Below, one piece after another: positions 37,907 through 52,167 of a stretch of 64,000 nt of DNA. The translations under genes were made by a program, and so were the position numbers. The notes under the pieces are model-generated. The model worked only from the letters and a program-made list of their open reading frames with translations, was not told the DNA's origin and made no database searches. Positions within the stretch are counted from its first letter, which is position 1. Every line of letters starts with the position of its first letter. The stretch spans positions 571,798-635,797 of the forward strand of contig NZ_JH379029.1 in assembly GCF_000235505.1 (NCBI RefSeq). The letters are read 5' to 3'. The stretch is from Hungatella hathewayi WAL-18680 (GTDB lineage Bacteria; Bacillota; Clostridia; Lachnospirales; Lachnospiraceae).

Positions 37907-39427
37907 CTATTTAATCTGCACCATCAGACCGCTGAAGTACGTATCACTCTTCATGAATTTCTTCAGCGCCCCCATCGTCTCTTTTTTACTGTTCTTTGTA
38001 TTGTCAAACTTCACCGTCACACTGCGCTCCTTCTGTGAAACCACCTCAAACGCAATACCGGCAACTTCCTTACCTGCAAACAGCTCGATCACTTTCTCCG
38101 GCTTTGCGCAGGTAATAGTAATCGTATCTTCCGTATTGCTGGCATCTACGATACTTTCCTGTGCATTTTGCAGAACTGTCGCTCTGCTTTCTTCTTTCAC
38201 GTACTGCTTATCCAGCGCTCTGACAAACGGCAGATAAATCAGACAGCAGATGATAAACAGCACAATCCACCAGAACAATCCCACAAATCCGCCAAACTGG
38301 ATAAAGGCCAGAATGAAATAAGGGCAGTTACGGATTTGTGTTCCGTTACAATAGGGAAGCCATCCCACCACATTCAGGAAATATGTAAAAAATACGGAAA
38401 CCGGATATGCAATAATCGTCGGTATCGCCATAATCGGGTTCAATACGGTAGGAAGTCCAAAATTAATCGGCTCCGAGATACCAAAGATGGCAGGCACGGC
38501 CGCAACCCTGGTTACGCTCTTTGTTCTGTGAGACCTTCCAACTACAAAACACATAAAGATCAGCGGTAACACACCCGGCGTCAGGAAAAGCCCTGTCACG
38601 ATGCTTGTCATCTGCTGCCCGGCTGCATACTGAGCCAGGTTTCCGAGACGGGCTTCCGCAAACAGAATATTTTTCATCTGATATGTCACAGCGCCGCCAT
38701 GAATTCCCAGCCACCACAGTGTCATGGAAATTGTCTCAATCACCGCAACTCCCCACGGTCCCGAAGTAACGATGCTTAACGGTTTCTGTAACAGTGTATA
38801 GAACGCGGTAAATACATCCCCCCAGGGTGTAAATGTAAACACGTAGCGGATAATGATAAAAACAAACGCCACCAAAAACGCCGGAATCAGCGAGGAAAAT
38901 GAATTTGATACAAACGGCGGCACCGAATCCGGCATTTTAATCGTCCACTTTTTCTTATTCGCATAGGTACACAGGGCGCCCACGCCAAACCCTACAAAAA
39001 GTGCAATAAACATCCCCTTGGCACCCGTATAGGTAAACGGAATTGATGTCACGGCATCCCAGCTCTCCCCAACCGTCTGATACGGAACAAGAATCACAAA
39101 GGCAAACAGTGCAATCAGTCCTGTCACAATGGCATTTTTCTTATTTCCTTTTTCCACACAGTAATAATAGGCGACTGCAAATACCAGATAAATTGAAATA
39201 AATTCTGTCGTATACTGCACCGGAATATTCAGAATGGTGTCAAGTCCCGTACTCGCCAGCAATCCCGTCCACGCCGCACTTGGAAACCCTGCAATCAGAG
39301 CAAAAATAGAACCAATCATCATAAACGGGAATATCAGCATAAACGAGTGCTGTATCACATTTAACACCGTAGCTCTTGATATCTTCCCGGCCCACTCAAT
39401 TAATTTTTCTTCAAAGTTTTTCCACAT
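37907..39427 (-). CDS. PTS Lac/Cel-family EIIC permease with an extra C-terminal domain
   Basis: 506 aa, longer than the usual 410-450. Residues 1-412 are the ten-helix EIIC channel (WLGIHGGAVTYQMKN and GISEPINFGLP are family motifs). From about residue 413 a soluble tail of ~94 residues follows (ITITCAKPEKVIELF, VTVKFDNTKNSKK). The tail has no EIIB cysteine loop or EIIA histidine and I do not recognise it. ATG 39427 has AAGGGAG upstream; it follows the EIIB gene by 22 bases. Confidence 0.9.
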   Translation of the reverse strand: MWKNFEEKLIEWAGKISRATVLNVIQHSFMLIFPFMMIGSIFALIAGFPSAAWTGLLASTGLDTILNIPVQYTTEFISIYLVFAVAYYYCVEKGNKKNAIVTGLIALFAFVILVPYQTVGESWDAVTSIPFTYTGAKGMFIALFVGFGVGALCTYANKKKWTIKMPDSVPPFVSNSFSSLIPAFLVAFVFIIIRYVFTFTPWGDVFTAFYTLLQKPLSIVTSGPWGVAVIETISMTLWWLGIHGGAVTYQMKNILFAEARLGNLAQYAAGQQMTSIVTGLFLTPGVLPLIFMCFVVGRSHRTKSVTRVAAVPAIFGISEPINFGLPTVLNPIMAIPTIIAYPVSVFFTYFLNVVGWLPYCNGTQIRNCPYFILAFIQFGGFVGLFWWIVLFIICCLIYLPFVRALDKQYVKEESRATVLQNAQESIVDASNTEDTITITCAKPEKVIELFAGKEVAGIAFEVVSQKERSVTVKFDNTKNSKKETMGALKKFMKSDTYFSGLMVQIK

Positions 39428-39449
39428 AATTCTCCCTTCCCGTACCCGC

Positions 39450-39755
39450 TTACACCCCTGCAATTTCTTCTGCAAATTTCAAGATGGCGGCTCCGTCCAC
39501 ATTACCGTAATCGGTTTTATTCATAATCGCAACCTTGGCATCCGTCCCACTGACCTGCTCCTGTACCTGTTTTAACGCATGTGCCACCTGCGGCCCAACA
39601 AGAACCACATCAGGCACCTCATCCTCCTCATCAACGGAATTGACATCCGTTGCACTGATTTGATAATTCTTCCCCTGCTCCGCAGCCGCCCGTTTCATCG
39701 CGGCCACCACAATACTGGTAGACATTCCCATTGAACAGCACAGTAAAATCCTCAT
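39450..39755 (-). CDS. PTS Lac/Cel-family EIIB component
   Basis: 101 aa. The phosphocysteine loop is MRILLCCSMGMSTSIVV, with C7 as the likely phosphorylated residue; VVLVGPQVAH is the conserved second strand. It accepts phosphate from EIIA and passes it to the sugar in EIIC. AGGAGGGTGACAA precedes the ATG. First gene of the PTS operon. Confidence 0.93.
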   Translation of the reverse strand: MRILLCCSMGMSTSIVVAAMKRAAAEQGKNYQISATDVNSVDEEDEVPDVVLVGPQVAHALKQVQEQVSGTDAKVAIMNKTDYGNVDGAAILKFAEEIAGV

Positions 39756-39846: not shown

Positions 39847-39870
39847 AACATACAGTCAAAACAGTATATA

Positions 39871-39917
39871 AAAAGAGCCGCCGCGCATCCATCATCCCTG
39901 ATGATACGCAGCAGCTC
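39871..39917 (-). terminator. Terminator of the DeoR-controlled operon
   Basis: A long stem (GAGCTGCTGCG / CGCGGCGGCTC with G-U pairs, plus inner ATCATC/GATGAT) followed by TTTTTAT on the minus strand, 31 bases after the last gene. Confidence 0.8.
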
Positions 39918-39948
39918 GTTCCTAAACCCAGCTTCTGTACAAAAATCA

Positions 39949-40896
39949 CTATAAAATAATATTCCTCTGTTTCCCGTCCATCCAAAGTTCCAAACTCTCA
40001 AACACAATCTTCGCCCGCAGCTCCATGGATTCCTCCGAGGCAAACGCGATGTGAGGGGTCACAATGGTGTTGGGGGTGTGTAGCAGCGGGTGATCGGTGT
40101 TCAGCGGCGGCTCTGTCTCGAACACGTCTATGCCGGCGCCGCCGACGGTTCCCTCGTGGAGCGCTTTGGCCAGCGCCTCGGAATCTACCACAGGGCCTCT
40201 GGACGCGTTGATGAGGATGGCGCCCTTCTTCATCTTTCCTATGGTCTCCTGGTTTATGAGGCCGGTGGACTCCGATGTCAGTGGGCAGTGGAGAGTCACG
40301 ATGTCAGAGCCTGCCAGCAGTTCCTCCATCTCCACATAGTGAAGGTATTCCGGCGCGTCCTTCTTAGGGTACAAGTCATAGGCCAGAATCTTACAGCCAA
40401 ATGCATGATACAGCTCCGCCACCCGGCTGCCGATGGCTCCGGTTCCGATGATTCCCACGGTCTTGCCGGCCAGCTCCCGTCCTACCAGTCCATCTTTCGT
40501 CTTGCCTTCCCGGCATCTCGCATCCACTTGGGGAACATTTCTCAAGAGGGACAGCGTCATCCCGATCACCAGTTCCGCCACCGACTCGTTGGAGTAGCCG
40601 GACGCGTTGCTGACGGCAACCCCGTTCTCCTTTGCTGCTTCCAAATCCACATGGTCCACACCGGTAAACGCCACGTCGATAAATTTCAAATTCTTGCAGG
40701 CACGGATGACCTCCCCTTTCAAGGGCATATTGGCAATCATAATCACGTCGGCATCCTTGGCCCGCTCAATCTGGACAGCCGTATCCATGTCACGCCCATA
40801 AGCCTGGAACTCATGGCCCTCAGCCTTCAAATTTTGGGCATACCCCTCCAGCACCTCATCCTTTACTCCCAGTGATTCCAGCAGTACAATTTTCAT
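39949..40896 (-). CDS. D-2-hydroxyacid dehydrogenase, NAD-dependent
   Basis: 315 aa. Rossmann motif GKTVGIIGTGAIGSRV, and the catalytic Arg (NASRGPVVD), Glu (VFETEPP) and His (TPHIAFAS) of the D-lactate/glycerate dehydrogenase superfamily. It would reduce a 2-keto acid or oxidise a D-2-hydroxyacid formed by the pathway. Last gene of the long operon, 32 bases after the PdxA-like gene. ATG 40896 has AGGG 8 bases upstream. Confidence 0.88.
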   Translation of the reverse strand: MKIVLLESLGVKDEVLEGYAQNLKAEGHEFQAYGRDMDTAVQIERAKDADVIMIANMPLKGEVIRACKNLKFIDVAFTGVDHVDLEAAKENGVAVSNASGYSNESVAELVIGMTLSLLRNVPQVDARCREGKTKDGLVGRELAGKTVGIIGTGAIGSRVAELYHAFGCKILAYDLYPKKDAPEYLHYVEMEELLAGSDIVTLHCPLTSESTGLINQETIGKMKKGAILINASRGPVVDSEALAKALHEGTVGGAGIDVFETEPPLNTDHPLLHTPNTIVTPHIAFASEESMELRAKIVFESLELWMDGKQRNIIL

Positions 40897-40928
40897 GTTT
40901 CTATCCCTCTCCTTCTCTCTTCTTTCAC

Positions 40929-41936
40929 TCAACAGATTCCCGGTTTATAAGTGACGGAATACTCCGCCGCCAGACGAATGGCCTCGCACATGCTGACCTC
41001 GCTGGCCAGATTTTTACCCGCTATATCAAAGGCGGTCCCATGGTCCACGGATGTGCGGATATAAGGCATTCCCACCGTCACCGAGATGGTCCGCTCAAAG
41101 TCCACCATCTTCGTTGCAATATGCCCCTGGTCATGATACAGGGAAATGACGGCGTCAAAGTTTCCCTTCAGGGCCAGATAAAATACGGAGTCCGCCCCAA
41201 TCGGCCCCTCTATATTGATTCCCTCTGCCCTGGCCCTCTCAATGGCCGGCGCCATCTCCCTGACCTCCTCCCAGCCAAACAGCCCGTGCTCCCCACTGTG
41301 AGGATTCAGCCCGGCGATAGCCAGCCGTGGGTTCTCAATACCGAGATTCTGCATTCCCTGATGAACCCTCTTGATATAACGGTATACATGCTCCTCCGTC
41401 ACAAACTCAATGGCCTGCTGCAACGACAGATGCCTGCTCAGAAAGAACACCCGGAGGTTCTGCACCTGGAACATGGTCATGGGGTCCTCCACGCCGAGAA
41501 GTCCGCCGATAATCTCCGTATGGCCGATATAATGGATATCCGCCGCCTTCAGCGCCTCCTTGTTGATGGTGGTGGTGGCAATGGCGTCCGCCTCCCCACT
41601 CTTTAACAGCTCCACCGATTTCTCTATAAACTCAAAGGCAGCCCGTCCCGCGTCCCGCTGCACCTTGCCAAATTCAATCTTACTGGCGTCCACATTTTTC
41701 AAATCAATCAAATCCAATATTCCAAATTCCGCATCCACCTCGCCCGGATGCTCCACACAGCGGATTTTAACCTTTGATTCCGTCACGGAAACCGCCCGTT
41801 CCATGGCTGACAGCTCTCCGACCACGATGGGCCGGCACCATTCATAGACCTCCGGATGCCCCATGGCCTTCACCACAATTTCCGGTCCCACACCGGCGAT
41901 ATCACCGACAGGAATCACCACAACTGCCTTTTTCAT
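40929..41936 (-). CDS. PdxA2-like 4-phospho-acid-sugar dehydrogenase
   Basis: 335 aa. PdxA fold with VVVIPVGDIAGVGPEIV at the start and the three metal histidines in IGHTEIIGG, NPHSGEHG and YHDQGHI. PdxA itself makes the vitamin B6 precursor, but the copy next to a DUF1537 kinase (PdxA2) oxidatively decarboxylates D-threonate- or D-erythronate-4-phosphate to dihydroxyacetone phosphate. The ATG overlaps the kinase stop by 4 bases, so the pair is translationally coupled; this strongly favours the catabolic role. Confidence 0.85.
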   Translation of the reverse strand: MKKAVVVIPVGDIAGVGPEIVVKAMGHPEVYEWCRPIVVGELSAMERAVSVTESKVKIRCVEHPGEVDAEFGILDLIDLKNVDASKIEFGKVQRDAGRAAFEFIEKSVELLKSGEADAIATTTINKEALKAADIHYIGHTEIIGGLLGVEDPMTMFQVQNLRVFFLSRHLSLQQAIEFVTEEHVYRYIKRVHQGMQNLGIENPRLAIAGLNPHSGEHGLFGWEEVREMAPAIERARAEGINIEGPIGADSVFYLALKGNFDAVISLYHDQGHIATKMVDFERTISVTVGMPYIRTSVDHGTAFDIAGKNLASEVSMCEAIRLAAEYSVTYKPGIC

Positions 41937-43264
41937 CCTTCTTCCTCCTGCACACTTATCTGATTTATCATTTTTACACAGGACAACATTTTATGTAAGG
42001 TCTCTCTATCTCCTATCATCCCGCCTTTGGTCAGGATTTTCATCCCTGACACCTCTCCGCCTGCCGCATATCCATACACCGCCAAAGGACTGATCTCCCC
42101 CTGGGGCTCCACTCCCTCCATTCCAGCCAGCCCGGCAAATGCTTTCGCAATATCGCCGCCGCTGAGATAGATGAGCTCGAATTTCGTTTCCCTCTGCTTC
42201 ACCAGTCCAAGAGCCAGACCGGCCACCGCCTCCGCGATCAGTTCCGCTGTCCTTCTTCCCTCGCCGGAATCGGAGGCCACATGAAACCGCTTGGAGTAAG
42301 CCGTGGTGATACAGAGATTCTCATGACCGGCCCCTTCCTCCCGGAAATACCGGTTTACCCGGCACATTTCCTCCGCCGGCTCCCGAAGCAGCCGTTCAAT
42401 GTCCACCGGATACAGACAGACATCTCCGTTCTCCTTCAAAAAATCCAGCTGCTCCCTCGACGTCTCCGACAGACTTCCGACTACCAGCAGATTCTTTCTC
42501 CCATCTTCACCGCTGCCCGCAAACCGCAGGGATGCCGTCTCCAGCGTAAAATCTCCCGGGTCCACACAGACATAAGCCACACCCGATTCCACGCACCCTC
42601 TGGCTATGGTCCGGATGTCATCCATGTCCGCGGCGTCCACCACCACGACGGAGCATTCCGAATCCCGCAGTCTCCCGGCGACCTCACCGGCACCCCGGTG
42701 TACCTCCTCCAGGGAAATCCAGTCCACCTGTCTCTCCGTCTGCTTCCGGATAATGTCCACCGCCCGGGACTCCGTCACCGGAGTTCTTGGGTCTCTGGCC
42801 GCCCCGCTTTTCTCCAGCGGAATTCCCTCCACCAGCACATACCCGCCCACGCAGATACGCCCAGCCCTGGGTCCCGCCGGAACCACCACGGCTTTCCAAT
42901 CCCTTGGAACTGCCTCCAGAATACCTTCTATCTCTTTCCCAATATTGCCTCTCAGGGTGCTGTCAATCCTCTTGCTGACAAGGACTCCCGTCTTTCCATC
43001 CTGTTCAAGCGTTGTTTCTCCATTCCATTTATGCGCCGCTTCCCCCAGACATCTCACCGCCGCCTGGTACACCCGCGCCTTTGCCTCCTGCCCCTCCTCG
43101 GAGCGGCTGTCCGTGTTGATGCACACCGCCTCATACCGGTTCCACGCGCCGTCCGGCAGCTCATCCCGGAAGCTGGAAAATGTGGAAAATCCCCGCTGTC
43201 GAAGCAGCGCCCCGGTATCGTTGGCCCCGGTAAAATCATCCGCAATCACCAAAACCTCAGCCAT
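41933..43264 (-). CDS. Four-carbon acid-sugar kinase family protein (DUF1537)
   Basis: 443 aa. Begins MAEVLVIADDFTGANDTGA, the signature of the DUF1537 N-terminal domain (sugar binding); the C-terminal half has the nucleotide-binding loop (LIYLSGGDIAKAFAG, ISPLAVYGYAAGGEVSGMKILTKGGMIGD). Characterised members phosphorylate D-threonate, D-erythronate, L-threonate or 3-oxo-tetronate at C4. Which acid is used here cannot be told from sequence. ATG 43264 overlaps the upstream hydrolase stop by 8 bases; AGGAGG is 11 bases upstream. Confidence 0.87.
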   Translation of the reverse strand: MAEVLVIADDFTGANDTGALLRQRGFSTFSSFRDELPDGAWNRYEAVCINTDSRSEEGQEAKARVYQAAVRCLGEAAHKWNGETTLEQDGKTGVLVSKRIDSTLRGNIGKEIEGILEAVPRDWKAVVVPAGPRAGRICVGGYVLVEGIPLEKSGAARDPRTPVTESRAVDIIRKQTERQVDWISLEEVHRGAGEVAGRLRDSECSVVVVDAADMDDIRTIARGCVESGVAYVCVDPGDFTLETASLRFAGSGEDGRKNLLVVGSLSETSREQLDFLKENGDVCLYPVDIERLLREPAEEMCRVNRYFREEGAGHENLCITTAYSKRFHVASDSGEGRRTAELIAEAVAGLALGLVKQRETKFELIYLSGGDIAKAFAGLAGMEGVEPQGEISPLAVYGYAAGGEVSGMKILTKGGMIGDRETLHKMLSCVKMINQISVQEEEG

Positions 43265-43946
43265 GCCTCCTGCCACCTCCTCTGTCGTTCATAATCAGAT
43301 TGTCGTGGCCCGGCACAATCACATCCGCCGTATCGGAAAGCATCCGTATGGTTTTAGCCGCCTCCTCACTGTCCTGCTCAAACATGGAGGTCTGATGCCT
43401 GAAATGGTCTCTGGTCATCACACCATCCCCCGCCACCACCACGCGCCGGCCATCCGCCCAGAAGGCGGCCCCGTGCAGGTGTCCCATATGGCCCGGCAGA
43501 GGTAACGCATAGACTCCCGGCAGAAATTCCCCTCTCACGCCCACCACACGGCCTCCGTCAATATGCTCGGAGCTTCTCAACTCCTCCGCCACCGGCTCCG
43601 CCGCATACCACACGGCCTCCGGAAAATAATTCAGTCCCGCCTGATGGTCATAATGGCTGTGGGTCACAAAACAATGGGTGATGTCTTCCCTGTGAAGCCC
43701 AGTCCGCCGGTTAATGTCAAAGTAATAATCCTCCGGTGTCACCCTCAGCGTCGGGTCAATCAGAAGCACAAACCGGCTCCCGTCCTCCATCCTTCCCCGC
43801 ACCATGGTAGAGGTGCAGGTGGACGGATTCCCCCTGGGCGGCGCCTCCTTCGTCTCACCAAAATATGGATTCCATTTCAGATGACCGATGACAATGATCT
43901 CAAAATCCTCAATCCGCCCCTGAATCTTATCAAATACATCCCCCAT
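43257..43946 (-). CDS. Metallo-beta-lactamase-fold hydrolase
   Basis: 229 aa. The metal motif HxHxDH is present (VTHSHYDHQAG), with PLPGHMGHLHG (third His), VVAGDGVMTRDHF (bridging Asp) and VIVPGHDN (last His). In this operon it could be a sugar lactonase that opens the lactone produced by the upstream dehydrogenases; family membership alone does not prove it. GGGGAGG lies 8 bases before ATG 43946. It overlaps its upstream neighbour by 17 bases. Confidence 0.82.
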   Translation of the reverse strand: MGDVFDKIQGRIEDFEIIVIGHLKWNPYFGETKEAPPRGNPSTCTSTMVRGRMEDGSRFVLLIDPTLRVTPEDYYFDINRRTGLHREDITHCFVTHSHYDHQAGLNYFPEAVWYAAEPVAEELRSSEHIDGGRVVGVRGEFLPGVYALPLPGHMGHLHGAAFWADGRRVVVAGDGVMTRDHFRHQTSMFEQDSEEAAKTIRMLSDTADVIVPGHDNLIMNDRGGGRRHG

Positions 43947-44943
43947 CTTCGTAACCTCCCCGCGAATCAACCGGAACACAGTGATCCCGAAGCTCCTCAT
44001 ACAGCTTCATGGTCTCCGCCGTATCCCCAAACGTCGCAGCCGGACTCACCAGCCCTCTCACTGCATCCACATAATGCTCCAGTTCCCGCTCAAATCCATA
44101 ATGTCCATACAGAGAGGAATGCCCCTGGTTATAATTCCACCCCTGCAAATCAAGTCCTGGTTCCAGCACCGGCGACAGCCCCCGCTTATCCGACACCGGC
44201 CGGTTGTACTCCAGGCCCTTCACGTTATCGACAATCACATTGCAGCCATCTCCCGTAATCTCCACCCGCTCCATGGGATAATCCTCCCGCTGAAACGACG
44301 ATGTCTCCAGAAATCCCAGCGCCCCGCTCTCCGTGACAAAGCGGATATGATACCCCGCTTTTCCCACACCGCGGACGACCTTTTCCCCATGGATTTCCCG
44401 GATTTCTCCCATCAGATACCGGGCCAAATCCAGATGATGGATGACATGGTTCAACAGGAAATATTCATCCGAAGGGTAAACTGAGGAGTGGTACTTGGCC
44501 ATATAAAGCATTTTCTCCCCGAATTCCCGTCTCTCCACAATCTCCTTTGCCATCTGGTAGGAGGTGGTAAACCGGCGGTTGAACCCCACCATGGTGAAGC
44601 ATCCGGAAGCCTTCTCCAACTCCCGAAGCTCCACCGCCTGTGCATAGGTCTCACACGGCGTCTTCTCCACAAACGGGCTGATGCCCCGCTCCATACAGGC
44701 TTTCGCCGCCCGGTAATGGAGCCCCGCATTTCCGGCGCAGAGCACGCCGTTCAGCTCTTCCCGGTCGAGCATTTCCTCCAAGTCCGTGTATACACGCTCC
44801 GCCGAAAATTTCTCCGTGAAGCGCCGGCACCGCTCCTCATTTCTGTCACAGACCGCCGGCAGATGAACCGGCAGTCCCACCGTCAGCGGATACAGTCTCC
44901 GATACATGTGGTCCCCCAGCCCGATAAGACCAAGCCTTAGCAT
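43930..44943 (-). CDS. Gfo/Idh/MocA-family NAD(P)-dependent oxidoreductase
   Basis: 337 aa. N-terminal Rossmann fold RLGLIGLGDHMYRRLYP, the active-site lysine motif FVEKTPCETYAQA (usual EKP) and the C-terminal substrate domain with NHVIHHLDLARYLMG, whose HHxxD is typical of the catalytic His/Asp. It oxidises a sugar or sugar acid ring hydroxyl. The start at 44943 is chosen because AAGGAG precedes it, right after the stop of the aldo/keto reductase gene. Confidence 0.85.
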   Translation of the reverse strand: MLRLGLIGLGDHMYRRLYPLTVGLPVHLPAVCDRNEERCRRFTEKFSAERVYTDLEEMLDREELNGVLCAGNAGLHYRAAKACMERGISPFVEKTPCETYAQAVELRELEKASGCFTMVGFNRRFTTSYQMAKEIVERREFGEKMLYMAKYHSSVYPSDEYFLLNHVIHHLDLARYLMGEIREIHGEKVVRGVGKAGYHIRFVTESGALGFLETSSFQREDYPMERVEITGDGCNVIVDNVKGLEYNRPVSDKRGLSPVLEPGLDLQGWNYNQGHSSLYGHYGFERELEHYVDAVRGLVSPAATFGDTAETMKLYEELRDHCVPVDSRGGYEDGGCI

Positions 44944-44950
44944 CTTCTCC

Positions 44951-45811
44951 TTATACATACCGTTTATGTACCTCATCCAAGTCTATTCTGCCTGTCATAT
45001 CATTGCAGATTTCCACATTTTCCACCACTCTCGCCGCGCTTCTCATGCCAATCAGCGCCACATCCACCAGCGGATTGGAGAGCACAAACTGAATCAATGC
45101 CCGGCTGTAATTGAAGGTATTTTCCGGGTTCACCATCTGAATCCATCTCTGGAAGGTGCCGGATGTGGGCGCCCGCATGGTGACAATCCCCATTCCCTTT
45201 TTCTCCGCCTCTATCATGCTTCCAAAGGGACGGCTCGGCTCATAAGGGTGCTGGAACAGAAAATTATAGCACATCTGCACCACGTCAAACTCCCCGCTGT
45301 CAATAAATTCGTACACCACGTCATTATTGTCCTCCGTGGTAAATCCCAGATATTTCACCATCCCGGACGCCTTCAGCTCTCTCATGGCCTCCAGCATACC
45401 GCCCAGCCCCAGGATGCTGTCACGCCGCTCTCTGCTGATGCTGTCCCCATGAATCTGAAGCAAATCCACACTGTCCCGTTTCAGGTTCTTAAGGCTGTTC
45501 TCCACCGAGCGCATCACTTCATCCCTGGTCCCAAAACTGGCCTTGGTAGCCAGGAAAATGGATTCCGGCTTCACTCCCTCAAGGGCCATGCCAAACATTT
45601 TCTCACTCTGACCGCCTCCGTAGCCAGGCGCCGTATCAAAGTAGTTGATCCCCAGCTCCAGCGCCTTCTCAATGGCTTCCACCACGCCCCGGATGCTCTC
45701 GTCGCTGGACGGATCGTACTCATGAAGATAATTTTTCAGTCCCGCTACCGCACCGCCGAACCCAATCCGGCTCACCGTTCTTCCCGTGTTCCCCAATTCT
45801 CTATATTCCAT
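44951..45811 (-). CDS. Aldo/keto reductase
   Basis: 286 aa. The catalytic tetrad is visible: Asp in NYFDTAPGYGGGQ, Tyr in the same loop, Lys in LATKASFG and His in LLQIHGDS. The C-terminal NADPH-binding part is degenerate-looking but present (PLVDVALIGMRSAARVVENV). Its partner role is probably interconversion of an aldose and a polyol or keto sugar within this pathway. It follows the MalG-type permease by 28 bases. Confidence 0.85.
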   Translation of the reverse strand: MEYRELGNTGRTVSRIGFGGAVAGLKNYLHEYDPSSDESIRGVVEAIEKALELGINYFDTAPGYGGGQSEKMFGMALEGVKPESIFLATKASFGTRDEVMRSVENSLKNLKRDSVDLLQIHGDSISRERRDSILGLGGMLEAMRELKASGMVKYLGFTTEDNNDVVYEFIDSGEFDVVQMCYNFLFQHPYEPSRPFGSMIEAEKKGMGIVTMRAPTSGTFQRWIQMVNPENTFNYSRALIQFVLSNPLVDVALIGMRSAARVVENVEICNDMTGRIDLDEVHKRYV

Positions 45812-45839
45812 CGCACACATTTCCCCCATGCTTTTCGTA

Positions 45840-46670
45840 TTATCCCTTCACCGCCGATGCCGCCATACCGTTGATAATCTTATCCTGCATAAACACATAG
45901 GCCACCACAATCGGCAGAAGTCCCACAATCACGCAGGCCGACAACAGGCCGTAATCCGTGAAGAATTCCCCTTTGAAAAATGCCAGCGCCACCGTCAGCG
46001 TCCTCTTCGATGCGGACGGAAGCAGAATCATGGACCATACGTAATCGTTCCAGACATTGATAAATGTCAGAATCAGCACAATCATCAGCCCATTTCTCGT
46101 CAGCGGCACAATGATTCTGGTAAACAGCTGTCCCGGGGTGCACCCGTCCAGCAGAGCCGCTTCCTTCACCGATTCCGGTATCGCCTTCATGAAGGATACC
46201 AGCAGGAAGATGGAGATTGCCATCCTGCCTGACGTGTAGAGAAGGACAATGCCGGTTCTCGTCCCCAGCAGATGAAAGCTCTGAAGCAGCTTATAAATCA
46301 TACCCATGGTCGTGGCTCCGGGAATGAAGATTCCCATGGTAAAGAGCAGGTACACAACCGAAGCCCCTTTAAACCGGTAGCTGCTCAGCACAAACGCCGC
46401 CATCATACTGAAGGCCGCTGTGAGAACCATGGTTCCCCCTGTCACCAGCACGGAGTTTCCAAAGGAGGTGATAATTGTCTTCTCCTTCAAAATCGAAATA
46501 TAATTGGAAAAGTCAAACTGCTCCGGTATCACCCGGAAGGTGCTCAGTATCTGTGTATTCGTCCGAAAAGAATTAACCAGCGTCCAGATAATCGGGTAGA
46601 CGGAGATCAACACAATCAGCACCAGAAAAATACCCTTTATAACAGAACCAATCCGTATTTTTTTCACCTT
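45840..46670 (-). CDS. Sugar ABC transporter permease, MalG/CUT1 type
   Basis: 276 aa, six membrane segments, and the EAA coupling loop EAALLDGCTPGQLFTRIIVPLTRNGL. It forms the channel with the MalF-type protein encoded just upstream. No ATPase gene is in this operon, so it must share a multi-sugar ATPase (MsmK/MsiK type) made elsewhere, as is common in Firmicutes. GAGGGG precedes ATG 46670. Confidence 0.92.
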   Translation of the reverse strand, partial: KVKKIRIGSVIKGIFLVLIVLISVYPIIWTLVNSFRTNTQILSTFRVIPEQFDFSNYISILKEKTIITSFGNSVLVTGGTMVLTAAFSMMAAFVLSSYRFKGASVVYLLFTMGIFIPGATTMGMIYKLLQSFHLLGTRTGIVLLYTSGRMAISIFLLVSFMKAIPESVKEAALLDGCTPGQLFTRIIVPLTRNGLMIVLILTFINVWNDYVWSMILLPSASKRTLTVALAFFKGEFFTDYGLLSACVIVGLLPIVVAYVFMQDKIINGMAASAVKG

Positions 46671-46687
46671 CATGTCATCCCCTCCTC

Positions 46688-47566
46688 TCAATCCGTAGTG
46701 AATCTGGAATTCAGACCTTTTCTCACACAACTGGTCACCACCATGGTCAGCACAAACAGGATCAGCGCCGCCGCGCTTCCATAACCGTACTCTCCATTTA
46801 CAAAAATGGATTTGTACATGTAAGTGGCGGGAACCTCGCTGGCATGTCCCGGGCCGCCGTAGGTCATAATAAAGATATAGTCAAAGTTCTGGAACGCCCC
46901 GTTGATGGCAAGGATGATGCAGACCACCAGGGTGGGCCACACGGTCGGCAGCGTGATTAGGAAAAATTCTGTCAGAGAGTTGGTGCCGTCCATTTTCCCC
47001 GCCTCATAGAGGTCTGATGGAATATCCTTCATCGCCGCAAACAGGATGACGAAGAAATATCCGATTGCCTGGTAGATGGGAATCAGGATAACCGCATAGA
47101 AGGCGGTTTTCGGGTCGCTCAACCAGTATTTTGCATATTTCCCCAGCCCCACCGCTTTGAGCAGCATGTTAATCAGGCCGATATCTTTGTCATACATGAT
47201 GGTGAACATCAGACACATGGCCGATGCCGATATGATGTAGGGCAGAAACACCACGGAGCGGAAGAATCCGATTCCCCGTATGGCTTTTGTCAGCACATAG
47301 GCAATCACCAGCGCCATTCCCACTTTAAACAGGATGGAGAGCACTGCCCAGATGAAAATCCGGATAACCGCCTCCCTGAAAACCTGGTCTGTTAAAATCC
47401 GTTTGAAGTTCTCTATTCCAACCCATGCTGGAGCCGTAAATCCATCCCAGTCCGTCAGACTGTAAGCCGCCGTTTCCAAAAACGGATAAATGAAAAACAC
47501 ACAATATAATGCAAGTCCAGGTACCAGGAATAGTAATGCTTTTTTATTACACCGCAGTGTCCCCAT
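46688..47566 (-). CDS. Sugar ABC transporter permease, MalF/CUT1 type
   Basis: 292 aa with six membrane segments; EAA motif YEAGKMDGTNSLTEFFLITLPTVWPTL. It lies between the binding-protein gene and the other permease, the usual CUT1 order. Confidence 0.92.
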   Translation of the reverse strand: MGTLRCNKKALLFLVPGLALYCVFFIYPFLETAAYSLTDWDGFTAPAWVGIENFKRILTDQVFREAVIRIFIWAVLSILFKVGMALVIAYVLTKAIRGIGFFRSVVFLPYIISASAMCLMFTIMYDKDIGLINMLLKAVGLGKYAKYWLSDPKTAFYAVILIPIYQAIGYFFVILFAAMKDIPSDLYEAGKMDGTNSLTEFFLITLPTVWPTLVVCIILAINGAFQNFDYIFIMTYGGPGHASEVPATYMYKSIFVNGEYGYGSAAALILFVLTMVVTSCVRKGLNSRFTTD

Positions 47567-47612
47567 ACGCCCTTCTCCCTTCTGTCATTTTCCCCTATAA
47601 AACATGAAATTC

Positions 47613-48971
47613 TTATTTCTGGTACAGTGCGTTATCGAGGGCCACAGCCATCTCCGCGCCGGTCTTGTAGGTTCCATACCAGCTCTCATTGATCACAATG
47701 CGGAAATTGTCAACAGGTCCCGGTTTTGCAAAGGACAGAAGCCATTTATCACCAGGCGCTTTCTCCGCAAGGGCGGATGCTTCACGCTGTAAATCCGTTA
47801 CCTTTGACGGGTCCACATCCAGATTCAGATGGGGAACTGCCATACGCTCTTCTTCCACATAGCGTTTCGCCGTCTCTTTGGAGACGATTCGCTTCATCAA
47901 CTCTACCACATACTGCTGTTTGTCCGCGTCAGCATAGGCGTCCGCGCTGATATAAACCAGGTTGGTCAAATCCTGTTCCAGTGATGGTTTCTCAATAACG
48001 GACACTGGCGTCAGTGGCAGGTCCATTACCACCAAATCTTTTAAAATGTCATCGGTCAGGTTCTTGTCAATCACGGTACAGTTGGACAGCACCATGCCTG
48101 CTTTTCCCGTATTTAAATATTTGGTAACCGCCTGGCTGATACTGAGAACCGGTCCGTCCTCAGGAGCGTAGCCACTGGAAACCTCCAGGAAATAATCAAG
48201 GGCCCGGATAACATCCTCCTGCTGGAAGGATTCATTTCCCTTCAACAGTTCAAGTCCCTTCTCATTGCCAACCGCGCGGTTGATAATGGCATTGAACAGA
48301 CGGGAGGAGTCATCCATCCCCTCTTTGGTATCAACACACCACGGAATGATGCCGTTTTCTTTCAGCTTCACACAAGCCTCTTTTAACTTATCCCAGTCTG
48401 TGGGAAGGTCCACGCCGTACTGGTCGAACACCGCTTTGTTCACCAGGAACTCAATGTAGAAATTACTTCTCGGGATACAGTATACTTTTCCGTCCACCGT
48501 TGCGGTCTTCCACGCATACTCCGGGAACAAATCTTCAAAGAATGGGTCTGTATTCACCATCTCCGTCAAATCGGCAATAGCGCCCTTTTCAATATACTTG
48601 TCCACATTCCATTTTGATTCCGGTCTCCAGAATGTGAAAATGTCGGGTGTGTTGTCCCCCATAATGTCCGTATTAATCTTGGTAATCAAATCGTTGCCCG
48701 GACTCTCCTCGATTTCCAGTTTTACATTGGGATAATCCTTCTGAAACTGGTCCAGGATGGATAAAAGTACCGGTGCCGTGGTGTCTGTCATAGACTGTGT
48801 TGCAAAACGGATTGTCACGTTCTTTCCGGACGCTCCCGTTGTTTCCCCGTTTGTGGCCGCCTGGCTGCTGCCGGCCGGCGCCTGTGTCTCTGAAGCTGTG
48901 TTACTGCCGCACCCTGATAACATGGTCCCCACCATCGCGGCTGTCAACATGATTGCTGTCAACTTTCTCAT
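47613..48971 (-). CDS. Extracellular sugar-binding lipoprotein of a CUT1 ABC importer
   Basis: 452 aa. Signal peptide with lipobox TMLSGC (lipidated C21), a Ser/Thr/Ala-rich linker, then a type-1 sugar-binding fold (VTIRFATQSMTDTTAPVLLSILDQF; IMGDNTPDIFTFWRPES). It captures an oligosaccharide or glycoside for the two permeases. The substrate is unknown; the neighbouring cytosolic glycosidase and acid-sugar enzymes suggest a uronic- or aldonic-acid-containing glycoside. Confidence 0.9.
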   Translation of the reverse strand: MRKLTAIMLTAAMVGTMLSGCGSNTASETQAPAGSSQAATNGETTGASGKNVTIRFATQSMTDTTAPVLLSILDQFQKDYPNVKLEIEESPGNDLITKINTDIMGDNTPDIFTFWRPESKWNVDKYIEKGAIADLTEMVNTDPFFEDLFPEYAWKTATVDGKVYCIPRSNFYIEFLVNKAVFDQYGVDLPTDWDKLKEACVKLKENGIIPWCVDTKEGMDDSSRLFNAIINRAVGNEKGLELLKGNESFQQEDVIRALDYFLEVSSGYAPEDGPVLSISQAVTKYLNTGKAGMVLSNCTVIDKNLTDDILKDLVVMDLPLTPVSVIEKPSLEQDLTNLVYISADAYADADKQQYVVELMKRIVSKETAKRYVEEERMAVPHLNLDVDPSKVTDLQREASALAEKAPGDKWLLSFAKPGPVDNFRIVINESWYGTYKTGAEMAVALDNALYQK

Positions 48972-49016
48972 AATGATTCCTCCAATTCATTTATAGTTTT
49001 TGCTTATTTGTATCTG

Positions 49017-51161
49017 CTAATTTGTTTTTATGTAAACCGATGTGAACTCCTGCAGTTTCTCCAATTCCACAGAAATAACCAGCTTCCCTCCTTCCCGCTC
49101 ACTTGAAATCGATACTTTCCCTTCCTGTCTCAATGTTTTCCACTTCACCACGGATTTCGCATCCAGCGATATCCTGATTTTCGTGTGAAATACCGGCAGT
49201 ACTTCTCTCACCGGCCTTGCCGTACCGGATGTGGTGTTTACCACAGACAGCACCAGTTCCTCCGGCGAAGAGACTTTTCTTGTTAAAACCACATGGACGC
49301 TTTCCGGAGCGTCAGTCTCTATCACTGCGTCCCCTCTCATCACCCAGTTACATGCCCCCAGATACAGGTTCAGAAAATCCTCATGGCCGTTGGTATAACA
49401 GAGTTTGTCTGTCTGGTTTGCGAAATAGACCACCCGGCCGCTGCCATATTCACCGGCCATCACGGTAGGATATTCCGTGTCCAGATTCGCCCTCCAGGCA
49501 AATTCCGGCGGCTGGTTGAATATCATTGGAATATAGGTACACACCGCCGTCATGCGCTCGCTGCCACATTCCGTACACAGAAGCGTCCGTCCCTCGTTCA
49601 TCAGGACCTCCGTCCGCTCCGGTTCACATTGATGCAATATCTCATGATGATTTCTGATTTTCTGATAGCAGTCCAGGGAAGTATCCTTCTCTATACCGGT
49701 GTAGCTGCAGCCGAACATATCTCTGAGTCCAAAGTCCGCCCTCTGCCGTCCTGTCTCATCGTAGAGGGATGTTCGGCCGGAAGCGATGAGGCCGCCGCCA
49801 TTTTTCACATATTCCCTGATGATATCCATGTGTTCGCCGCTGATGCAGGCCGCGTTCGGCAGTACCAGCATTTTTAGCTGCCGGATCTTCTCATAGGAAA
49901 ATTCCAAATCCGGAATGAACTGATACTGAACATGGTTTCGGGTAAATGCCCGCTCCACCCCTTTTATAAAGACGCCGTATTCGTCCAGTTCTTCCCTGTC
50001 GCTGCCAAACCTGTCTCTGCTCGACTTGGAATAATAGATGCCTGCATCCATCCAGGGAACCAGCCCGTCCAAAATGTCCTCATGTTCTTTCAGATATGTA
50101 TAAGCCTCTGTCTCAAGCCCCGCATTCCGCTTATCATGGGTAGCTCCCGGATGCTGTCCGTTGAACATACAGTTCCAGTAACCGGCCCCCACGCTGGCAG
50201 CCTCCCAGAGCCAGATTTTCGTCTCCTGCTTCGGCGCCATCACATAGCGCCATTTGGTTCCGTTATTCCCGTACAGCAGCACCGCCTGTTTCCCAGGATC
50301 AATGGCCTTCAGGAAACGCATGCTGGATGCCGCATATGTCAAGTCGTCATACTTCCGGTCCGGCTGGGCGCTTCCGTCCAGAAATGCCGGGCTCACCAGG
50401 AAGTCGAACATATCCTTCGCATCGTATAAATCAATCCCGGTCATCAGCGCGTTGGACGCATGGAACATGCCAAATATCTCGGCGCAGTAGGCCTTGTCCT
50501 CCCCGAAGCTCTTCACCGCGTCCCGCATTCTCCTCAAATGCTCTCTGGCGCAGGATGCCTTCCAGACACGGTACTCCCGAAACTCCTCCGACGCGTAATC
50601 GTCTCCCGTCGGAATCTCTTTCCCCGTATCCTCCCGGTATTTATCACGGCAGACCCTGCAGTAACAGGGACCGTCGCCGAACCCCACGCTGTTCTCCCAT
50701 ATTCCGTCCACCGGATAACGGCTCATCATATTTTTTATGTACTGAATGGCGTGGTCGTTGGCGTAAATGCCGTTGTAGCAGGGCTTGTGAATCCTTCCGC
50801 CCCAGCCCGCCTTCGCCTTCCCGTTCTTGTCCTGGGCAAACCAGTCCGGACGCTCCTCATACCGCTCCGCTTCCACGCCGCGAAAGTCCACCCGGACCAT
50901 CACCGCGATGTCATGGGCGTGGCATTCCTCCACAAGCTCCTTTAAAATATCTCTGTCCCCCATAAAGATATTCTTTCGCCCCAATGGTTCCTCAATCGGG
51001 AAAAAATCAATGATTCCCCCCGCATTGATGATAATGCTGTTGGAGTTTGTCTTCACCAGATACTCCACCACCTGCTTCGCGTCATAACCCACCATATCCG
51101 ATTCTCTGAGAACCGTTTGCAGCATCCGCAGCTGCTTCTGATACCAATACTTTTCTCCCAC
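49017..51161 (-). CDS. Cytosolic glycoside hydrolase-like protein with beta-galactosidase trimerisation-type domain
   Basis: 714 aa without a signal peptide. Residues ~15-340 look like a TIM barrel of the alpha-amylase-like GHL6 group: DIAVMVRVDFRG, YPVDGIWENSVGF followed by the small cysteine cluster CYCRVC (residues ~172-177), and YCAEIFGMF. Residues ~380-610 resemble a Rossmann-like trimerisation domain (LVLPNAACISGEHMDIIREY, GGGLIASGRTSLYDETG), and the end is a small beta domain. Substrate and mechanism are unknown. It is the first structural gene after the DeoR regulator and probably hydrolyses the imported glycoside inside the cell. Confidence 0.75.
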   Translation of the reverse strand: MGEKYWYQKQLRMLQTVLRESDMVGYDAKQVVEYLVKTNSNSIIINAGGIIDFFPIEEPLGRKNIFMGDRDILKELVEECHAHDIAVMVRVDFRGVEAERYEERPDWFAQDKNGKAKAGWGGRIHKPCYNGIYANDHAIQYIKNMMSRYPVDGIWENSVGFGDGPCYCRVCRDKYREDTGKEIPTGDDYASEEFREYRVWKASCAREHLRRMRDAVKSFGEDKAYCAEIFGMFHASNALMTGIDLYDAKDMFDFLVSPAFLDGSAQPDRKYDDLTYAASSMRFLKAIDPGKQAVLLYGNNGTKWRYVMAPKQETKIWLWEAASVGAGYWNCMFNGQHPGATHDKRNAGLETEAYTYLKEHEDILDGLVPWMDAGIYYSKSSRDRFGSDREELDEYGVFIKGVERAFTRNHVQYQFIPDLEFSYEKIRQLKMLVLPNAACISGEHMDIIREYVKNGGGLIASGRTSLYDETGRQRADFGLRDMFGCSYTGIEKDTSLDCYQKIRNHHEILHQCEPERTEVLMNEGRTLLCTECGSERMTAVCTYIPMIFNQPPEFAWRANLDTEYPTVMAGEYGSGRVVYFANQTDKLCYTNGHEDFLNLYLGACNWVMRGDAVIETDAPESVHVVLTRKVSSPEELVLSVVNTTSGTARPVREVLPVFHTKIRISLDAKSVVKWKTLRQEGKVSISSEREGGKLVISVELEKLQEFTSVYIKTN

Positions 51162-51188
51162 TGTCTTCTCCCCGTATCGTTCTGCTGT

Positions 51189-51950
51189 TTATACTTCTAT
51201 CACGTTGATGTTCAGTTCCCGGATTTTCTCCCATTCCTTCTCATTAAACTTCTTGTCCGTTATGACACCGGCAAACTCGCTGAGACAGCCCACCAGACAC
51301 ATGGCCTGGCTGTAAAACTTGCTGGAATCCACCACCAGATATACCTGGGATGCCAGTCCCATCACCGTCTGCTTCAGATATGCCTTATCCGGAGTCGGAG
51401 AAAATACCTCAAAATTGTAGTTCACCGATGACGTCCCCAGAAATGCCTTCGAAAAGCGGAACTGTTTTAAAAACTCTTCCCCGGCATGGCCGATGACACT
51501 CTTTGTCTTCTTGTGAACCGTCCCTCCCAGTATGGTCAAATCCACATCGGAGTCCGTCAATATGGTCGCTATATTCAACTCGTTGGTCACCACCGACAGA
51601 TGCTTGGAATCCTCGCAGAGCAGTTTGGCAATCTCTCCGATGGTCGTGCCGCTGTCCAGGTAGATCGTGTCGTTCTCGCTGATTAATTCCACCGCTTTTT
51701 GGGCGATTTTCTGCTTTTCTTCCCGCTGGTATTCCTTTTTTACGTTGTAGTCAATCTCCATAATGGTGTCTTCCGGTATCTTCGCCCCACCGTGACACCG
51801 CTCCAGAAGATGCTGCTCACAAAGCATGTTCAAGTCTCTCCGGATTGTCACCAGACTCACATGAAACATCTGGGCCAGCTCCTCCACTGTGATGAAATTC
51901 TGTTCCTGCACTTTGTTCAATATCATCTGTAAACGTTCCGCCTGTAGCAT
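51189..51950 (-). CDS. DeoR-family transcriptional repressor
   Basis: 253 aa. N-terminal DeoR helix-turn-helix (ITVEELAQMFHVSLVTIRRDLNML) and a C-terminal DeoRC sensor domain with the phospho-sugar loop YLDSGTTIGEIAKLL and VVTNELNIATIL. Such proteins repress catabolic operons until a phosphorylated sugar binds, which fits an operon that makes acid-sugar phosphates. First gene of the operon, 27 bases before the glycosidase gene, so it is probably autoregulated through the repeats at 51992-52065. Confidence 0.92.
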   Translation of the reverse strand: MLQAERLQMILNKVQEQNFITVEELAQMFHVSLVTIRRDLNMLCEQHLLERCHGGAKIPEDTIMEIDYNVKKEYQREEKQKIAQKAVELISENDTIYLDSGTTIGEIAKLLCEDSKHLSVVTNELNIATILTDSDVDLTILGGTVHKKTKSVIGHAGEEFLKQFRFSKAFLGTSSVNYNFEVFSPTPDKAYLKQTVMGLASQVYLVVDSSKFYSQAMCLVGCLSEFAGVITDKKFNEKEWEKIRELNINVIEV

Positions 51951-51991: not shown

Positions 51992-52065
51992 CGATTTTGT
52001 TCGTTCTTGAATTTATTATATCATTGCTTTTCCCTTTGTCAAGATGTTTTTCGTCGATATTGTTC
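51992..52065 (-). promoter_or_regulatory. Promoter of the acid-sugar operon flanked by direct repeats (putative DeoR operators)
   Basis: Minus strand TTGACA (52037-52042), 16 bases, TATAAT (52015-52020). The 11-base direct repeat GAACAA(T/A)ATCG occurs once upstream of the -35 (52055-52065) and once downstream of the -10 (51992-52002); extra TCG(A/G)AAGT-like copies follow. The placement fits a looping or blocking repressor. Confidence 0.65.
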
Positions 52066-52167
52066 TTTTCTGTTCGTAAATCGAAGTTTTTCAGTCATTT
52101 TTCCTATATTTTACGTCAGACGTCTGATTGTTTGTGTTCTTCATTCGTCTTTTTTCGATATGGCAGC

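What the first reader, a model, noticed from the sequence alone, without database searches (positions are those of the whole stretch)
39949..51950. Eleven-gene DeoR operon for an unknown acid-sugar glycoside
One strand, small gaps and overlaps link repressor, cytosolic GHL6-like glycosidase, CUT1 importer, aldo/keto reductase, Gfo/Idh enzyme, metallo-hydrolase, DUF1537 kinase, PdxA2 and 2-hydroxyacid dehydrogenase, with promoter and terminator at the ends. DUF1537 plus PdxA2 is the established threonate/erythronate route to DHAP, but the importer, glycosidase and extra redox steps suggest a longer substrate, perhaps a glycoside oxidised and cleaved to a tetronate.
Basis: partly seen in the sequence, partly recalled or inferred. 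Interest (0 to 1): 0.65.

Follow-up and report, generated by a model that had tools for sequence, protein, structure and literature searches.

The report
Acid-sugar operon with altered glycosidase
Eleven neighbouring genes form a rare, conserved bacterial pathway that appears to import an unknown sugar compound, oxidise it and turn a four-carbon acid into a glycolysis intermediate; its sugar-cutting enzyme belongs to an undescribed branch whose catalytic residue seems to have moved.

Summary
In detail: 11 ORFs on one strand (39949-51950), a perfect sigma-70-type promoter, and a strong terminator-like hairpin. The same 11-gene set, reordered, lies in one run in a bacterium of another family, so it is a real functional unit. 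The set is rare. The kinase/PdxA2 end matches the known DeoR-DUF1537-PdxA2 tetronate operons; vitamin B6 synthesis is unlikely (no PdxJ in the genome). The front end is a conserved triad: GHL6 protein, aldo/keto reductase, metallo-hydrolase with a lactonase-like site. It also occurs in a draft genome where no DUF1537 or PdxA was found, so it is a separable module, best read as aldose to lactone to aldonate. The GHL6 protein is not GH151: the Asp nucleophile of GH151 is Asn157 here, while an Asp appears at position 92. This swap is complete (18 of 18 against 0 of 27 sampled relatives) and defines a clade often found beside 2-hydroxyacid dehydrogenases and glycerate kinases. Boldest unexcluded reading: the clade cleaves sugars off the 2-hydroxyl of short aldonates, such as glucosyl-erythronate from radically cleaved glucans.

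The parts
52015..52042 (-). promoter TTGACA-16-TATAAT
   Evidence: 12 of 12 consensus
51998..52077 (-). pair of ACGAACA heptamers (52077-52071 and 52004-51998) bracketing the promoter, candidate DeoR operator
   Evidence: only exact ACGAACA-N45-75-ACGAACA match in the 5.7 Mb genome (reversed control 2); motif also upstream of the G532 cluster and of the short operon L075; chosen post hoc
51189..51950 (-). DeoR-family repressor
   Evidence: PF00455/PF08220; 54% identical to G532 orthologue
49017..51161 (-). GHL6 + GH42M protein, N157/D92 clade
   Evidence: PF14871, PF08532
47613..48971 (-). lipoprotein-type sugar-binding protein of the importer
   Evidence: PF01547
46688..47566 (-). CUT1-type permease A
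   Evidence: PF00528
45840..46730 (-). CUT1-type permease B (likely start near 46673)
   Evidence: PF00528
44951..45829 (-). aldo/keto reductase, candidate aldose 1-dehydrogenase
   Evidence: PF00248; L-galactose dehydrogenases among nearest solved relatives; 59-69% identical in L068/L069
43930..44976 (-). Gfo/Idh/MocA dehydrogenase
   Evidence: PF01408; 43% identical in G532
43257..44000 (-). metallo-beta-lactamase-fold hydrolase, candidate aldonolactonase (likely start 43946)
   Evidence: HxHxDH...H...D...H invariant; fold model best matches lactonase AiiA
41933..43276 (-). DUF1537 four-carbon acid-sugar kinase
   Evidence: PF07005, PF17042; 45 positions invariant with 8 relatives
40929..41936 (-). 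PdxA2-type decarboxylating dehydrogenase
   Evidence: PF04166; PRK03743 517 bits over cut-off 470; aligned to 6e85
39949..40932 (-). D-2-hydroxyacid dehydrogenase (likely start 40896)
   Evidence: PF02826 and PF00389; R245, E274, H294 invariant in 5 homologues (catalytic role recalled)
39868..39935 (-). intrinsic terminator-like hairpin and T run

Best explanation
This is a DeoR-controlled catabolic operon for a sugar compound that contains or yields a four-carbon aldonic acid. Proposed order: the ABC importer takes up a small glycoside; the GHL6 protein and the AKR/metallo-hydrolase pair cleave it and oxidise a free aldehyde end (AKR: aldose to aldonolactone; metallo-hydrolase: lactone to aldonate), in an order that is not known; the 2-hydroxyacid dehydrogenase and the Gfo/Idh enzyme adjust oxidation state or stereochemistry; the DUF1537 kinase phosphorylates the tetronate at O4; PdxA2 oxidises C3 and releases CO2, giving dihydroxyacetone phosphate. 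Shown here: gene content, conserved linkage, complete metal site of the hydrolase, separable triad, exchange of catalytic-type Asp in the GHL6 protein. Inferred: every reaction, the C4 size of the acid (from the kinase/PdxA2 pair), and the glycosidic nature of the substrate.
For: All 11 genes recur in one run in G532, of another family, in the order KIN-PdxA2-HADH-GH-AKR-MBL-Gfo-SBP-PermA-PermB-DeoR; its two contigs share an exact 36-nt end and split the GHL6 gene into complementary parts. Seven enzymes and the regulator are 32-69% identical, the importer only 26-28%. GH-AKR-MBL recurs in G1321 at 54/61/55%, with no DUF1537 or PdxA hit there; AKR-MBL occurs as a pair in L069. The metallo-hydrolase has all metal ligands in 4 of 4 homologues and its model best matches N-acyl homoserine lactonases and a lactonase ancestor. 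Kinase + PdxA2 match the short DeoR-DUF1537-PdxA2 operons at six loci examined, one checked to carry a GntP permease. PdxJ is absent and this is the only PdxA gene of the genome, so B6 synthesis is unlikely.
Against: Kinase 219 of 450 bits and PdxA2 268 of 583 bits for the curated D-threonate models; short-operon kinases L074 and L075 also miss (228 and 280 bits). No natural tetrose glycoside is an obvious substrate. The GHL6 protein lacks the GH151 nucleophile. Gfo/Idh and 2HADH have no assigned step. In G460 the cluster is decayed: in-frame stop in GHL6, truncated AKR and 2HADH.
Confidence: 0.5

Rival explanations
1. Acid-aglycone model: the tetronate is the aglycone, linked through its 2-hydroxyl to a sugar. 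The GHL6 protein frees it; 2HADH, kinase and PdxA2 use the acid; AKR, metallo-hydrolase and Gfo/Idh oxidise the other half, or oxidise a tetrose reducing end to the acid before cleavage.
For: 2HADH is near 10 of 18 loci of this GHL6 clade against 1 of 27 loci of the other clade (Fisher p 1.2e-4; 7 of 15 against 1 of 27, p 1.5e-3, without the three loci of this pathway). Three clade loci carry glycerate kinase (MOFRL) and a tartronate-semialdehyde-reductase-like gene (L078, L084, L085) and one carries a LarA-family gene (L073). Radical cleavage of beta-glucan gives Glc-erythrose and Glc-erythronic acid ends (PMC5673685 passages).
Against: 8 of 18 clade loci have no 2HADH nearby; loci are related by descent; I found no characterised enzyme of the clade.
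Confidence: 0.3
2. GHL6 protein is an alpha-L-fucosidase-like GH151 enzyme and the operon degrades an L-fucoside or other D-threo aldose glycoside by oxidation at C1 through AKR and lactonase.
For: Nearest solved relative of the GHL6 protein is the GH151 fucosidase 6tvk, E 7.9e-8; L-galactose dehydrogenases are among the nearest solved relatives of the AKR.
Against: GH151 nucleophile D154 is N157 here; no fuconate dehydratase or aldolase in the operon; 6-deoxy acids have no terminal hydroxyl for the kinase.
Confidence: 0.07
3. The kinase, PdxA2 and 2HADH are part of vitamin B6 synthesis (4-hydroxythreonine route).
For: NCBIfam names the PdxA2 match 4-hydroxythreonine-4-phosphate dehydrogenase; 2HADH resembles the PdxB family (recalled).
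Against: No PdxJ in the genome while the control rang in 4 of 14 genomes; embedded in a sugar-import operon.
Confidence: 0.02
4. D-apiose type pathway: Gfo/Idh as apiose dehydrogenase, metallo-hydrolase as apionolactonase, DUF1537 as 3-oxo-isoapionate kinase (pathway recalled, no paper read).
For: Family-level match of Gfo/Idh, lactonase and DUF1537.
Against: OiaK model 35 of 700 bits; PdxA2 cannot oxidise the tertiary C3 of apionate (chemical reasoning); an apiosidase-family gene lies at another DUF1537 locus of the genome (L072).
Confidence: 0.05

Closest known systems
DUF1537-PdxA2 tetronate catabolism (D-threonate kinase DtnK / D-erythronate kinase DenK with PdxA2; Zhang et al. 2016, cited through PMC10971088 and PMC7954711 passages, original not held; DtnK/DenK names read there, PdxA2 step recalled)
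   Same: DeoR regulator, DUF1537 kinase and PdxA2 in one cluster; PdxA2 strongly similar to 6e85 D-threonate-4-phosphate dehydrogenase
   Different: five more enzyme genes and an ABC importer; kinase below equivalog cut-off
GH151 alpha-L-fucosidases (ALfuk2, 6tvk; Mfuc3 carries GHL6)
   Same: GHL6 barrel with CxC..C motif and a following beta-galactosidase-like middle domain
   Different: nucleophile Asp replaced by Asn, an Asp present at position 92 where Asp157-type relatives have N/S/T/C; low similarity
AiiA-type lactonases of the metallo-beta-lactamase fold
   Same: dinuclear metal motif and best fold matches
   Different: far below every curated lactonase cut-off (30.6 of 375 bits at best)
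GHL6-2HADH-glycerate kinase loci of related Clostridia (L078, L084, L085)
   Same: same GHL6 clade with 2HADH
   Different: C3-acid kinase and tartronate-semialdehyde-reductase-like gene instead of DUF1537/PdxA2; no AKR or metallo-hydrolase of this kind

Membership tests
DUF1537-PdxA2 tetronate operon | DUF1537 kinase with both domains | tested here: met
   PF07005 183 bits, PF17042 82 bits
DUF1537-PdxA2 tetronate operon | PdxA2 adjacent and DeoR in the cluster as in short operons | tested here: met
DUF1537-PdxA2 tetronate operon | kinase over D-threonate kinase equivalog cut-off | tested here: not met
   219 of 450 bits; two short-operon kinases also miss
DUF1537-PdxA2 tetronate operon | PdxA2 over D-threonate-4-phosphate dehydrogenase cut-off | tested here: not met
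   268 of 583 bits; PRK03743 517 of 470 met
DUF1537-PdxA2 tetronate operon | phosphorylates a tetronate | not testable with these tools
   needs assay
L-threonate/D-erythronate OtnK route | 3-oxo-tetronate kinase model, class II aldolase-type decarboxylase | tested here: not met
   111.6 of 350 bits and no aldolase gene in the operon
GH151 | nucleophile Asp (D154 of ALfuk2) | tested here: not met
   aligned residue is N157; D154 from PMC10154630; numbering offset of 29 in the 6tvk chain is my count
GH151 | GHL6 domain and CxC..C motif | tested here: met
GH151 | acid/base E235 | tested here: inconclusive
   region does not align; fold model failed
AiiA-type lactonase | HxHxDH plus distal H, D, H ligands | tested here: met
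AiiA-type lactonase | curated family score | tested here: not met
   30.6 of 375 bits
Vitamin B6 (DXP-dependent) pathway | PdxJ in the genome | tested here: not met
   0 matches
D-apiose pathway | OiaK-type kinase | tested here: not met
   35 of 700 bits

The most novel reading that the evidence does not exclude
The GHL6 clade defined here (Asn157/Asp92) is an undescribed glycosidase family with a relocated catalytic Asp that removes sugars from the 2-hydroxyl of short aldonic acids (glycerate, tetronates, perhaps lactate). In this operon AKR and the metallo-hydrolase first oxidise the tetrose end of a glycosyl-tetrose, such as the glucosyl-erythrose left when radicals cut across a glucan ring, to the glycosyl-tetronate; the GHL6 enzyme splits it, and DUF1537/PdxA2 send the tetronate to DHAP. 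It would be a salvage route for oxidatively damaged polysaccharide ends.
Probability: 0.12. Interest if true: 0.7.

Novelty: new variant of a known kind. Interest (0 to 1): 0.45.

Why it matters
If right, it extends the tetronate pathway upstream to a real environmental substrate, gives a first function to a branch of GHL6 (a Pfam family still named hypothetical), and shows an Asp exchange between two barrel positions that can be tested by two mutations. It offers a compact 11-gene set with a predicted inducer class, importer and enzymes for assay.

Tried and rejected
Vitamin B6 role: rejected, no PdxJ. Apiose route: disfavoured (OiaK 35 of 700 bits). GH151 membership of the GHL6 protein: rejected on the nucleophile. 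Oxidation of the intact glycoside by Gfo/Idh followed by elimination in the GHL6 protein: considered, but only 3 of 16 GHL6-clade loci (window, L134, L137) have a Gfo/Idh hit nearby, and those of L134 and L137 are distant homologues (24%). Fold of the GHL6 protein: failed, mean pLDDT 37.5 with two rows, not searched. DeoR operator via CGAAA repeats: no shared signal; ACGAACA kept only as a post hoc candidate. The Fisher test used 26 in place of 27 for the second clade; repeated with 27. Papers: 'glucosyl-erythronic acid' found in 0 papers; a search for DUF1537/PdxA with glycoside hydrolase, lactonase and hydroxyacid dehydrogenase terms gave 2 papers, neither of which looked like this operon in the listing; GHL6 gave 3 papers, one on GHL6 in Mfuc3. 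The 2016 DUF1537 paper is not held.

Sampling limits: genomes are draws (299 family, 392 order, 398 phylum, 391 class), many are fragmented drafts. The genome-contig scan used two peptide patterns and did not return the G1321 homologue found, so '3 loci' is a lower bound. Weak GHL6 hits (for example L022, L027, L029-L032) and many were not fetched with neighbours and are outside the 27.

Full report
Observation. Eleven ORFs lie on the minus strand between 39949 and 51950 with gaps of -71 to +46 nt as listed. A perfect promoter-like site ends 65 nt upstream of the first gene and a hairpin with a T run follows the last gene (-33.8 kcal/mol, 0 of 194 tiles as low). Upstream lie an SSB gene and a short ORF that reads by eye like ribosomal protein S18 (recalled); downstream is a PTS IIB/IIC pair.

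Conservation. The metallo-hydrolase was found in 3 of 392 genomes of the order, counting the window's own, and at 3 loci in a scan of 84,980 genomes with two peptide patterns. The AKR at E 1e-60 was found in 1 of 398 genomes of the phylum, the window's own. In G532 two contigs carry KIN-PdxA2-HADH-GH and GH-AKR-MBL-Gfo-SBP-PermA-PermB-DeoR. Their ends overlap exactly by 36 nt and the two GHL6 parts (433 and 278 residues) add up to about one protein of the window's length. So all 11 genes stand together in another family in a different order. Identities to the window: AKR 69, GH 62 (N part) and 45 (C part), DeoR 54, MBL 52, PdxA2 50, HADH 49, Gfo 43, KIN 32, importer 26-28%. In G460 the cluster is decayed (in-frame stop in the GHL6 gene, truncated AKR and 2HADH), and a 2HADH-metallo-hydrolase pair lies beside dihydroxyacetone-kinase-type genes.

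Tetronate end. Six other loci carry DeoR, DUF1537 and PdxA2 without the GHL6, AKR or metallo-hydrolase genes (L074-L077, L080, L081; L081 has a distant 2HADH-like ORF, 31%, nearby); one was checked to carry a GntP permease. The window's PdxA2 is 53-58% identical to theirs. 45 kinase positions are invariant across 9 sequences and 104 PdxA2 positions across 9. The PdxA2 aligns end to end with 6e85, a D-threonate-4-phosphate dehydrogenase. Curated D-threonate cut-offs are not reached, nor by two short-operon kinases. PdxJ is absent and this PdxA is the only one in the genome, which argues against vitamin B6. That DUF1537 kinases act on four-carbon acid sugars, including D-threonate and D-erythronate, was read as passages of PMC10971088 and PMC7954711; PMC9997740 passages call PdxA2 a catabolic paralogue. 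The original is not held; the step to DHAP is recalled.

Oxidative triad. AKR and metallo-hydrolase are neighbours in L068 and L069 and, with GHL6 in front, in G1321. In the window the Gfo/Idh gene lies between AKR and metallo-hydrolase, and the importer between GHL6 and AKR. No DUF1537 or PdxA was found in G1321 (83% complete). The metallo-hydrolase has HxHxDH and the three distal ligands in 4 of 4 sequences. Its model (pLDDT 75) matches AiiA and lactonase-derived enzymes best, at modest TM-scores of about 0.5-0.6. L-galactose dehydrogenases, which make an aldonolactone (recalled), are among the nearest solved relatives of the AKR. Aldose to lactone to aldonate is therefore the natural reading, but not shown.

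GHL6 clade. The nearest solved relative is the GH151 fucosidase 6tvk. In the alignment its DGIFLDIVG faces DGIWENSVG; the review PMC10154630 (passages) gives D154 as nucleophile, which matches that Asp after removing a 29-residue offset of the deposited chain (my count). Among 45 GHL6 proteins 18 have Asn and 27 have Asp at this place. Position 92 is Asp in 18 of 18 of the first group and in 0 of 27 of the second (N, S, T or C). With both columns removed, the 18 still form one clade (support 0.87). The exchange suggests that the catalytic Asp moved between two barrel positions; a fold model failed, so geometry is untested.

Context of the clade. A 2HADH gene lies near 10 of 18 clade loci: window, L073, L078, L079, L084, L085, L086, L138, G532 and G460. 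The window's 2HADH is 8.1 kb from the GHL6 gene, just outside the 8-kb radius, and was counted by hand as part of the operon. In the other clade the count is 1 of 27 (L142). Fisher p is 1.2e-4, or 1.5e-3 without the three loci of this pathway; shared ancestry makes both too small. L078, L084 and L085 add MOFRL glycerate kinase and a tartronate-semialdehyde-reductase-like gene; L073 adds a LarA-family gene. The common theme is a short 2-hydroxy acid. This favours, without proving, an acid aglycone. PMC5673685 (abstract and passages) reports erythrose and erythronic acid ends, including GlcEry1A, from radical oxidation of beta-glucan, so glycosyl-tetroses and glycosyl-erythronates do exist as oxidation products.

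Regulation. ACGAACA occurs 3 times in 128 kb (both strands of the window), twice within 130 nt upstream of the DeoR gene, on either side of the promoter; it also occurs once upstream of the G532 kinase and twice upstream of the L075 operon. The spaced pair occurs once in the genome (reversed control 2). The motif was chosen after looking.

Verdict. A real, rare, conserved operon; the tetronate end is of known type, the front end is a new combination, and the GHL6 clade is the most original part. Substrate and reaction order remain open.

Noticed in passing
L073 (G000:C1:3188000-3207000): Second GHL6 locus of the same genome, same Asn/Asp clade, with GH1, 2HADH, LarA-family racemase, SDR, metallo-hydrolase, GH42 and a CUT1 importer.
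   Followed up: partly
L072 (G000:C1:2276000-2295000): Second DUF1537 gene of the genome beside a two-component system, CUT1 importer, a mannosylglycerate-hydrolase-like gene, an apiosidase-family gene, and TRAP transporter, beta-keto-acid-cleavage-type and class II aldolase-like genes.
   Followed up: partly
L070 (G460:C299): Decayed copy of the pathway: in-frame stop in the GHL6 gene, truncated AKR and 2HADH, kinase and PdxA2 open.
   Followed up: partly
L067:7108-10678: 2HADH and metallo-hydrolase homologues follow Dak1 and Dak2 (dihydroxyacetone-kinase-type) genes in G460, possibly a DHA variant of the same end.
   Followed up: no
L084, L085: Compact loci of AraC regulator, 2HADH, GHL6, tartronate-semialdehyde-reductase-like gene, MFS_2 symporter and glycerate kinase in two genera; candidate glycosylglycerate pathway.
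   Followed up: partly
window 37907-39755: PTS IIC and IIB genes directly downstream on the same strand, behind the terminator.
   Followed up: no
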